Shown: one piece after another, positions 39,242 through 41,935 of the stretch
Layout: every line of letters begins with the position of its first letter
Position numbering within the stretch: the stretch's first letter is position 1
IMG/VR virus record: IMGVR_UViG_3300005340_000001
Location: 32,220 to 96,219 of that record
From: a virus
Length of the DNA: 64,000 nt
Strand: one strand, 5' to 3'
Position numbers and translations under genes: made by a program
The notes under the pieces: generated by a model
Told to the model about the DNA's origin: nothing
The model's database searches: none
The model's input: only the letters and a program-made list of their open reading frames with translations

Positions 39242-40266
39242 TGGCTGAGCAGAGCAAGATCGAGTGGACCGATTCCACGTGGAATCCCGTGACCGGGTGC
39301 ACGCGCGTCTCGCCCGGCTGTGCGCACTGCTACATCGAGCGCACGCCGCCGTTCCGCATGAACGGCCGCACCTTCGCCCGGGTTGGGAACGAGGAGACCA
39401 CCGGCGTCATGCTGCACCACGACCGACTCGAGCAGCCGCTCCACTGGACGAAGCCGCGACGCGTGTTCGTCTGCTCGCTCGCCGACCTCTTCCACGATGA
39501 CGTCCCCGTGGCATACATCGCCGAGGTCTTCGGCCGCATGGCGCTCGCGCACAGGCACGTTTTCCAAGTGCTGACGAAGCGCCCCGAGGGGATGCGCGAA
39601 GTGCTCACGAATCCGTTCTTCTGGGCGAAGGTCGAAGGCGTCGCGCAGCGCGTGACCTTCGAGACGACCGGCGAGGACACGAGCGAGACGCTCGCCGTCC
39701 ACGGGCCGCTGCCGAACGTCTGGCTTGGCGTCTCGATCGAGAACGCTCGCTACACATGGCGCGCGGACGTGCTCCGCGAGATCCCCGCGGCACTGCGCTT
39801 CATCAGCGCCGAACCGCTGCTCGAGTCGCTCTATCCGACAGGCGCGTTCCTCGAGCCGGCAGCGACGGTGAAGATCGAAGGCGTCGGCGCATGGAACGCG
39901 CTCGTCAAGTCCAAGCGGCCGCTCGACCTGACCGGCATCGACTGGATCATCGTCGGCGGCGAGTCCGGGCCCGGAGCTCGACCGATGCGGATCGAGTGGG
40001 CACGTGAGATCATCCGCCGCTGCGACCCGTACGAGCCGGTCTGCTGCGGCAACCGCGACGGCGAATGCTGCAACGAGCCCGTGCCGCGCGGACAGATAGA
40101 GCCCGTCACGGCCGTGTTCGTCAAGCAGCTCGGCTCGCGTCCGACTAGCGATCACGAACTCGGGCCATTCCCGCTCTCGCTGCGCGACTCGAAGGGCGGC
40201 GACTGGGACGAATGGCCACCCGACCTCCGCGTCCGCGACTTCCCGGCAAGCATGGTCGCGGCGTGA
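39241..40266 (+). CDS. Phage Gp37/Gp68-family protein (DUF5131)
   Basis: 341 residues from GTG 39241, overlapping the previous TAG by one base. The family signature is at the start: IEWTDSTWNPVTGCTRVSPGCAHCYIER, followed by VFVCSLADLFHDDVP, FQVLTKRPE, VWLGVSIENARY and IIVGGESGPGARPM. The two-Cys CxxxxxGCxxC start is conserved in this widespread phage family, whose biochemical role I do not know; a metal site is likely. Confidence 0.82.
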   Translation: MAEQSKIEWTDSTWNPVTGCTRVSPGCAHCYIERTPPFRMNGRTFARVGNEETTGVMLHHDRLEQPLHWTKPRRVFVCSLADLFHDDVPVAYIAEVFGRMALAHRHVFQVLTKRPEGMREVLTNPFFWAKVEGVAQRVTFETTGEDTSETLAVHGPLPNVWLGVSIENARYTWRADVLREIPAALRFISAEPLLESLYPTGAFLEPAATVKIEGVGAWNALVKSKRPLDLTGIDWIIVGGESGPGARPMRIEWAREIIRRCDPYEPVCCGNRDGECCNEPVPRGQIEPVTAVFVKQLGSRPTSDHELGPFPLSLRDSKGGDWDEWPPDLRVRDFPASMVAA

Positions 40267-40308
40267 GCACGACGATCCGGCAACTTCATCCCGAGGAGGA
40301 ACACCCGA

Positions 40309-41142
40309 ATGACTGAGACCGAGACCGAATCTAACGCCGCGGCGTTAGATTTGCTGCCGTGGCGCGCGCCTGACGGAATCGCTCTGACGCCAAACAGTCT
40401 GAGCGTGACCGACCCGGAGATGACAGTCGAACGCGTTGCCGAGGTTCTCGATCGGATCCGCGGGATGCGCGACGCCGGCAGCTGGTGGACGGGCGACTTG
40501 ATCCGCTTCTCGGAGGCGCGGCACGGCGAGAAGTACGCGCAGGCCGTCGATGCGACGGGTCTCTCGATCGGCCGGCTGATGATCATCGTCTCGGTCTGCG
40601 AGCGCGTCGCTCCGGAGCGCCGACGCGCCGAGCTCTCGTTCTCGCATCACGAGACGGTCGCGGCGCTCGAGCCTGCCGCTCAGAGCGAGTGGCTCGAGGT
40701 CGCGGTCCGCTCCGGCTGGTCGAAGGAGCAGCTGCGCGAGGCGCTGCGCGAGGCGGAGCAGCTGGCGGCGCGGCCGCCGCGACAGCCGAGCTCGAGCAGC
40801 GCCGGCGCGGCCGGCGGCGGCGAGCTCGGGCCCGGTGAGACGATCGACGCGGCGCGGAACCTCTCGGTCGTCCGCGAGACGCTCGACCTCGTCAGCGCGG
40901 CCCTGGACGCTGGCGAGGGCGACGCCGGCGAGATCGTGGAGCAACTCGCGGCGAGGCTGCCCGAGGCGCTACGCGCGCTCGAGGACGCGTCAGAGCCGGT
41001 CAGGAAGGCCTCCGGCGAGAAGAAAGTGATCGAGTCGGCACGGACGGTCGTGAAGGACGCAACGCTGTCCGACGGCTTCTACATGGTCACAGCCGGCGTG
41101 TTCGAGCAGTTCAAGATGGCCGTCGAGAGCCAGACGGCGTAA
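40309..41142 (+). CDS. ParB/DUF3102-like DNA-binding protein
   Basis: 277 residues, ATG 40309 behind GAGGAGG. The core (about 55-160) reads WWTGDLIRFSEARHGEKYAQ, SFSHHETVAALEP, EWLEVAVRSGWSKEQLREALR, a helix-turn-helix style shared with phage and plasmid ParB-like proteins. The C-terminus is helical. A 17-codon frame (GTG 40263) overlaps its start and may couple translation. Codons 7-14 coincide with a perfect 24-bp palindrome, which could be its own binding site. Confidence 0.6.
   Translation: MTETETESNAAALDLLPWRAPDGIALTPNSLSVTDPEMTVERVAEVLDRIRGMRDAGSWWTGDLIRFSEARHGEKYAQAVDATGLSIGRLMIIVSVCERVAPERRRAELSFSHHETVAALEPAAQSEWLEVAVRSGWSKEQLREALREAEQLAARPPRQPSSSSAGAAGGGELGPGETIDAARNLSVVRETLDLVSAALDAGEGDAGEIVEQLAARLPEALRALEDASEPVRKASGEKKVIESARTVVKDATLSDGFYMVTAGVFEQFKMAVESQTA
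40328..40351. promoter_or_regulatory. Perfect 24-bp palindrome in a coding region
   Basis: AATCTAACGCCG is followed immediately by its reverse complement CGGCGTTAGATT. It uses TTA and other codons rare in this genome, suggesting the DNA itself is constrained. Candidate operator or partition-like site. Confidence 0.6.
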
Positions 41143-41159: not shown

Positions 41160-41459
41160 ATGCCATTGGCAGCGGTGCCTCAGTTGGCGACCGACGAGCG
41201 GATACTCGAGTCCGACGCGCTCGAGGACGCGCTCGAGACCCGCGAGAAGCGGAAGAACTCGATGCGCGAGCTCCGCCGGCAGTTCAAGGAAGCCGACGAA
41301 CGCGCGAAGGCGCTGATCGGCGAGTTCGACCTCCAGGAGGGCGAGGTCGGCCGCATCGGGAAGTTCCGCATCTCCAAGACGGTGACTCCCAGCCGCAGCG
41401 TCTCGTTCGAGACCGACCCGAAGGCGCGGATCACGATCAAGGCGGACAAGGAGGCATGA
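41160..41459 (+). CDS. Small coiled-coil protein
   Basis: 99 residues, ATG 41160 behind GAGAGGAGC. Helical charged centre (DALETREKRKNSMRELRRQFKEADERAKAL) then a beta-rich C-terminus (GRIGKFRISKTV). Family not recognised. ATGA overlap with the next gene. Confidence 0.6.
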   Translation: MPLAAVPQLATDERILESDALEDALETREKRKNSMRELRRQFKEADERAKALIGEFDLQEGEVGRIGKFRISKTVTPSRSVSFETDPKARITIKADKEA

Positions 41460-41935
41460 GCGACTACGACTCTCGGCCGGAGACGCTCGAGCACATCGAA
41501 CGCGTGCGGTTCTTCATGCGCGCGGCGATCGCGAATCTCGAGGAACGCGCGAGCGTGCACGACGCGAGCAAACTCGTCTCGCCCGAGGTCGAGGCATTCG
41601 ACATCGCCACGCCGAAACTCGCCGAGCTCGTCTACGGAAGTCCGGAGTACAAGGCAGCGACAGACGAGCTCGGCGCCGCGCTCGATCACCACTTCGCGGA
41701 GAACGACCACCACGCTCAGCACTTCCCGAACGGCGTCAACGGCATGAGCCTCATGGCCGTCATGGAGATGCTCTGCGACTGGCGCGCAGCGAGCGAGCGC
41801 GGCAAGCAACGCACCGACGACCCCGAGAAGGTCGCGACGTTCGAGTCCGGACTCGAGTTCAACTTCGAGCGATTCGGGATCGGCGAGCAACTCGCCGAGA
41901 TCCTCCGCAACACCGTCGCGGAGTTGGGGCTATGA
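41456..41935 (+). CDS. DUF5662-like protein
   Basis: 159 residues. ERASVHDASKLVSPE near residue 32, followed by EYKAATDELGAALDHHFAENDHHAQH, is the pattern of phage DUF5662 proteins, which have a conserved HDxSK and clustered His and may bind metal. Activity unknown. ATGA overlaps on both sides. Confidence 0.65.
   Translation: MSDYDSRPETLEHIERVRFFMRAAIANLEERASVHDASKLVSPEVEAFDIATPKLAELVYGSPEYKAATDELGAALDHHFAENDHHAQHFPNGVNGMSLMAVMEMLCDWRAASERGKQRTDDPEKVATFESGLEFNFERFGIGEQLAEILRNTVAELGL

What the first reader, a model, noticed from the sequence alone, without database searches (positions are those of the whole stretch)
40328..40351. Perfect 24-bp palindrome inside the ParB-like gene
Two 12-bp arms with no spacer or mismatch in a high-GC genome, in codons 7-14, using rare codons including TTA. 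By chance this is very unlikely. It could be the protein's own operator, a partition-type site or a methylation/cleavage target.
Basis: seen in the sequence. Interest (0 to 1): 0.6.

Follow-up and report, generated by a model that had tools for sequence, protein, structure and literature searches.

The report
Phage regulator's operator inside its gene
A perfect 24-base palindrome in the first codons of a phage gene is most likely the DNA landing site of the very protein the gene encodes, and related regulator genes often hide such a site inside their own DNA-binding-domain codons, which appears not to have been described.

Summary
The palindrome AATCTAACGCCG|CGGCGTTAGATT is real (40328-40351, perfect) and unique in the 96-kb virus record. 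Alone it is only modestly improbable (about 0.016 expected per 64 kb). Context makes it significant. The "ParB-like" gene (40309-41142) is an LmbU-like regulator: a ParB-type HTH, but no ParB_N domain and no ParA in the record. LmbU binds a palindrome with core CGCCGGCG.

Across 100 LmbU-family genes from phages and actinobacteria, perfect palindromes recur at one exact spot: the C|G of a conserved Arg codon in the HTH coding sequence. Arms of 8 or more occur in 14 genes, against 0.27 expected with the same peptides and codon usage. The same palindrome, TGTCCCGNC|GNCGGGACA, also lies beside these genes. In 232 Solirubrobacterales genomes, fully symmetric matches occur only in genomes with an LmbU-family gene, each with a site on its contig.

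The window palindrome fits: its outer TCTAAC matches the in-gene site of phage relative L009, its inner GCCGCGGC the site beside L119. The closest relative, L004, has a shorter palindrome of similar layout at the same place in its gene.

Best explanation: an intragenic, probably autoregulatory operator of the phage's own LmbU-like protein. Binding is untested.

The parts
40328..40351 (.). Perfect 24-bp palindrome, proposed operator
40330..40349 (.). Operator core TCTAAC-GCCGCGGC-GTTAGA: half-sites 40330-40335 and 40344-40349 with 8 bases between
   Evidence: matches the family half-site TSTMMC/GKKASA; outer part as in L009, inner part as in L119
40309..41142 (+). Gene of the LmbU-like regulator (277 aa)
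   Evidence: NF038070 E 6.9e-26; tblastn to Streptomyces LmbU-family genes; AlphaFold2 model with helical core pLDDT over 90
40417..40782 (+). Codons of the LmbU-like domain (residues 37-158) with the ParB-type HTH
40621..40623 (+). Arg-105 codon, whose C|G is the palindrome centre in 16 of 100 family genes; not palindromic in this gene (arm 1)
40293..40299 (+). Shine-Dalgarno-like GAGGAGG, supporting the ATG at 40309
   Evidence: seen in sequence

Best explanation
The palindrome is the operator of the LmbU-like protein encoded by the same gene. A homodimer binds the two TCTAAC half-sites through its ParB-type HTH, inside codons 7-14 of its own gene, and most likely represses or blocks transcription of that gene and of the unit downstream (negative autoregulation). 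Shown here by computation: the palindrome; the LmbU-like domain; a family-wide association between LmbU-family genes and palindromes of this layout; and DNA-level selection for symmetry inside such genes. Inferred: binding, dimerisation, repression and the roadblock step.
For: (1) The gene is LmbU-like. LmbU binds a palindrome with core CGCCGGCG through its HTH, forms homodimers in vitro and represses its own promoter (PMC6510168). (2) In 100 family genes, 16 of the 17 perfect palindromes with arm 7 or more within -145..+109 of the HH codons are centred at exactly -23. With the same peptides and each locus's codon usage the expectation at -23 is 0.97 for arm 7 or more (observed 16), 0.27 for 8 or more (observed 14) and 0.155 for 9 or more (observed 11); codon-shifted control centres give about none. 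The palindromes have about nine different sequences, some in rare codons (CTA CGT AGG). (3) The same palindrome recurs in intergenic DNA next to LmbU genes. In two 6.1-Mb genomes the only two exact matches to a family pattern are in the LmbU gene and on its contig. In 232 Solirubrobacterales genomes all 7 genomes with a fully symmetric match are among the 14 with an LmbU-family gene, each with a site on the same contig (about 5e-10 if genomes were independent). (4) The window site shares its outer TCTAAC with L009's in-gene site and its inner GCCGCGGC with L119's site. (5) L004 has TTCAC-GGCGCC-GTGA centred about 33 nt into its gene, against 31 in the window, in the register of L085 and L064 TGTCAC-TACGTA-GTGACA.
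Against: No binding data. The protein scores below the LmbU curated cut-off. The window site has 8-bp inner spacing and the core CGCCGCGGCG, not CGCCGGCG. The half-site TSTMMC was formulated after seeing the data. No promoter-like sequence was found nearby, so how an operator there acts is unclear. Only one close relative exists, so conservation cannot be tested on a tree. Most family genes (84 of 100) have no long palindrome at the HTH site.
Confidence: 0.78

Rival explanations
1. Chance, or a perfect palindrome made neutrally by template-switch correction of an imperfect one during replication; no function.
For: Expectation is not negligible: 0.016 per 64 kb. Templated copying would also explain the unusual codons. 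L004 has a 32-bp perfect palindrome in an upstream gene that looks like a by-product of GC-rich codons.
Against: It lies in the one LmbU-like gene of the record (under 1% of the record), carries the family half-site at a family spacing (0.14% of random palindromes), and L004 has a comparable site at the same place. The family-wide position at -23 is not explained by chance.
Confidence: 0.13
2. An mRNA hairpin (12-bp stem including a G-U pair, CGCG loop) just after the start codon that tunes translation or mRNA stability.
For: The isolated hairpin is strong, -16.5 kcal/mol, and a G-U pair extends it.
Against: The 91-nt context folds no better than shuffles. Family palindromes are symmetric through the centre, which an RNA loop would not need, and also occur in intergenic DNA.
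Confidence: 0.05
3. A recognition site of another DNA-acting enzyme or regulator: a methyltransferase (family fusions exist), a partition site, or an attC-like recombination site.
For: Several viral relatives are fused to DNA methyltransferases; the phage encodes methyltransferases; TCTAAC/GTTAGA resembles integron R boxes (from memory).
Against: The window protein is not fused; one site only; no ParB_N and no ParA; the L boxes and spacer of attC are missing.
Confidence: 0.04

Closest known systems
LmbU of Streptomyces lincolnensis and its operators at lmbA and lmbW (PMC6510168, PMC10763038)
   Same: Related HTH domain; palindromic site with a CGCC/GGCG-type core; LmbU represses its own promoter
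   Different: The known sites are in promoters, with core CGCCGGCG. Here the site lies in the gene's own codons, with core CGCCGCGGCG and AT-rich half-sites TCTAAC. The phage protein is below the family cut-off and has its own C-terminal region
ParB / Spo0J / Noc / KorB HTH proteins and their palindromic sites
   Same: HTH fold: HTH_ParB in 7 of 25 relatives; Spo0J, Noc and ParB among the leading, weak structural matches
   Different: No ParB_N domain, no ParA, a single site, no parS or KorB-site sequence
Intragenic operators of E. coli such as purR O2, the purB roadblock operator and lacZ O2 (from general knowledge, not checked here)
   Same: A repressor site inside a coding region; purR O2 lies in the repressor's own gene
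   Different: Different protein family. In the LmbU family the site sits again and again at one codon of the HTH and changes its sequence while keeping symmetry

Membership tests
LmbU family (NCBIfam NF038070) | Whole-protein score over the curated cut-off of 125 bits | tested here: not met
   91.2 bits, E 6.9e-26; so called LmbU-like, not filed as a member
LmbU family (NCBIfam NF038070) | Homologous HTH region | tested here: met
   tblastn 34% over residues 23-139 to Streptomyces LmbU-family genes; conserved R105-R106 and H113-H114
LmbU family (NCBIfam NF038070) | Palindromic site with core CGCCGGCG | tested here: inconclusive
   The window site has CGCCGCGGCG; other family sites vary in centre and spacing
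LmbU family (NCBIfam NF038070) | Homodimer that binds the palindrome | not testable with these tools
   needs purified protein
ParB partition proteins | ParB_N domain and ParA partner | tested here: not met
   no PF02195 and no PF13614 in the 96-kb record; the record may be incomplete
ParB partition proteins | ParB-type HTH | tested here: inconclusive
   HTH_ParB (PF17762) in 7 of 25 relatives but not in the window protein; Spo0J ranked first by Foldseek at E 0.38
Integron attC site | R and L boxes with a central spacer, as generally described | tested here: not met
   only R-box-like ends, 24 bp in all

The most novel reading that the evidence does not exclude
LmbU-family regulators as a class tend to carry their own operator inside their gene, typically across a conserved Arg codon of the HTH. 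DNA symmetry is selected against codon usage, and the operator sequence co-evolves with the protein. In this phage lineage the site stands in the first codons instead.
Probability: 0.6. Interest if true: 0.75.

Novelty: new variant of a known kind. Interest (0 to 1): 0.62.

Why it matters
It gives the LmbU family, regulators of antibiotic clusters with many relatives in phages, a longer candidate operator (TGTCCCGNC|GNCGGGACA and variants) than the 8-bp core in use. That makes regulon prediction possible, offers a natural series of protein-operator pairs for studying how DNA specificity evolves, and warns that codon optimisation could erase the regulation.

Tried and rejected
A ParB partition system: no ParB_N, no ParA, one site. 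An attC-like site: only R-box-like ends. Direct conservation of the sequence: the only close relative (L004) lacks it; an exact search of the viral collection and mismatch searches of five relatives' records found nothing. Closer relatives through neighbouring genes: only L004 again. Phage records: no match. Palindromes around gene starts across the family: no general signal; the inverted repeat at the annotated start of L070 is probably chance, since the true start is likely further upstream. mRNA structure in context: no better than shuffles. The 8-bp core CGCCGGCG as a scan of the phage: 103 hits, uninformative at 68% GC. A PDB search with the whole-protein profile found essentially only methyltransferases, because of the fused relatives.

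Full report
Observation. The window holds AATCTAACGCCG|CGGCGTTAGATT at 40328-40351, perfect over 24 bp. It is the longest perfect palindrome of the 96,219-base virus record of which the window is bases 32220-96219; the next longest have arms of 8. Composition alone predicts 0.016 such palindromes in 64 kb and 0.024 in the record; an order-5 simulation gives 0.025. It is therefore unusual, but not beyond chance in a large scan. It lies inside the ORF 40309-41142, behind a GAGGAGG Shine-Dalgarno-like sequence, in codons with TCT and TTA; TTA occurs 4 times in 19,587 codons counted. The residues it encodes (7-15) lie in a lower-confidence N-terminal stretch of the AlphaFold2 model (pLDDT about 55-71), so the DNA is probably free of strong structural constraint there.

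The gene. Pfam and PHROGs do not name it. tblastn against plasmids finds LmbU-family regulators of Streptomyces and Pseudonocardia, and NCBIfam finds LmbU_fam_TF at E 7e-26, 91 bits against a cut-off of 125. HTH_ParB matches 7 of 25 relatives, and Spo0J, Noc and ParB are among the leading, though weak, structural matches. The record has no ParB_N and no ParA. LmbU binds a palindrome with core CGCCGGCG through its HTH, forms a homodimer in vitro, and represses its own promoter (PMC6510168).

One close relative. L004 (from a 12.3-kb IMG/VR contig) has a 65% identical protein. The window palindrome is absent there, but TCACGGC|GCCGTGA stands in its codons 9-14, centred about 33 nt from the ATG against 31 in the window. 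The genes at 41160 and 41932 are shared (86% and 83% identity). The gene upstream differs: the window has a DUF5131 gene there, and L004 does not. This suggests, without proving it, that the LmbU-like gene heads a conserved unit.

Family-wide signal. A census of palindromes in all fetched loci showed that 7 of the 11 with arm 9 or more lay inside LmbU-family genes. Aligned on the conserved L-S-[FW]-x-H-H codons, most share one centre, -23: the C|G of a conserved Arg codon (window R105). Examples are TCTCCCTACGTAGGGAGA (phage L007 and Solirubrobacteraceae L082), ATTTGTCACTACGTAGTGACAAAT (L085), TGTCACTACGTAGTGACA (phage L064), CGTGTCCCGTCGACGGGACACG (Streptomyces L076), TAACCGCCGGCGGTTA (phage L009) and GTGTACACGTGTACAC (phage L065). 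Of the 17 palindromes with arm 7 or more within -145..+109 of that motif in 100 distinct genes, 16 sit at -23. Resampling synonymous codons with each locus's own usage predicts 0.97, 0.27 and 0.155 genes with arms of at least 7, 8 and 9; 16, 14 and 11 are seen, and codon-shifted control centres show almost none. Related genes are not independent, but about nine different sequences occur. Symmetry is kept by changes on both sides, even with an amino-acid change (R against S between the L082 and L085 types).

The same palindrome outside genes. TGTCCCG[CT]C|G[AG]CGGGACA and variants recur next to LmbU genes: just after the stop codon (L105, L119), in the DNA beside neighbouring genes (L077, L079, L083), or elsewhere in the locus. 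Counting TSTMMC-N6/N8-GKKASA with exactly complementary arms in the fetched DNA gives 23 sites against 2 for the reversed control; three of the 23 are known only from loci fetched by the pattern itself. In two 6.1-Mb genomes the only exact matches to TSTCCYGNCGNCRGGASA are one in the LmbU gene and one on its contig. In Solirubrobacterales, 14 of 232 genomes have an LmbU-family gene. All 7 genomes with a fully symmetric match to TSTCMCKNCGNMGKGASA are among those 14, each with a site on the LmbU contig; four asymmetric matches lie in genomes without the gene. The known LmbU core CGCCGGCG is the centre of TGTCCCGCCGGCGGGACA.

The window site as an instance. TCTAAC-GCCGCGGC-GTTAGA has the outer half-site of L009's in-gene palindrome (TCTAAC-CGCCGGCG-GTTAAA, in the same reading frame: E S N x x x L) and the inner eight bases of L119's site (TGTCCC-GCCGCGGC-GGGACA). 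Of random palindromes of this composition, 0.14% carry TSTMMC at one of the two family spacings. L004's site TTCAC-GGCGCC-GTGA has the register of L085 and L064. Phages L007 and L064, like the window, have a single copy in their records, inside the gene.

Mechanism. Best reading: the dimer binds the site in its own gene and lowers transcription of the gene and its downstream unit. The gene lies in a part of the phage genome with a RecT-like annealing protein, replication-initiation and methyltransferase genes. Binding, sign and mode are inferred. No sigma-70-like promoter was found nearby, and an actinobacterial-type host, suggested by the relatives, may use other promoters. An RNA hairpin is possible but does not explain symmetry through the centre or the intergenic copies.

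Caveats. The half-site was described after seeing the data. Gene starts and some ORFs are mechanical. Only one close relative exists. 84 of 100 family genes lack a long palindrome at -23; some have a site elsewhere in the locus. The literature held here is open-access only, so novelty is relative to it.

Noticed in passing
L007:4131-4148, L082:3296-3313, L064:4281-4298, L085:723-746, L076:1656-1677, L009:3374-3389, L014:4116-4133, L065:4264-4279: Perfect palindromes of different sequence at one codon of the HTH in LmbU-family genes of phages and actinobacteria; this became the core of the explanation.
   Followed up: yes
L007, L009, L014, L064, L065, L066, L089: Natural fusions of an LmbU-like HTH domain with a DNA methyltransferase-like domain (N6_N4_Mtase or MT-A70 in the viral ones), mostly in phage contigs and several with an in-gene palindrome; the methyltransferase might act on the gene's own operator.
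   Followed up: partly
L004:1671-1702: 32-bp perfect palindrome CGCCGCCGAGCTGCTCGAGCAGCTCGGCGGCG in codons for AAELLEQLGG, about 95 nt upstream of the LmbU-like gene; probably a by-product of GC-rich codons.
   Followed up: no
virus record G000 bases 2565-2675 (outside the window), locus L165: Weak match (E 2.4e-4) to the C-terminal part (134-171) of the LmbU model in another gene of the same phage.
   Followed up: no
window 39271-39286 and 41841-41856: 16-bp perfect palindromes GATTCCACGTGGAATC (in the DUF5131 gene) and TCGAGTCCGGACTCGA near the regulator gene; the number of 8-bp arms in the record is about as expected.
   Followed up: no
L126 centre 2260, L096 centre 2202, L157 centre 1580, L142 centre 764: Perfect palindromes with arms of 23, 17, 19 and 13 in other bacterial loci, not of the operator type; perhaps terminators.
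   Followed up: no
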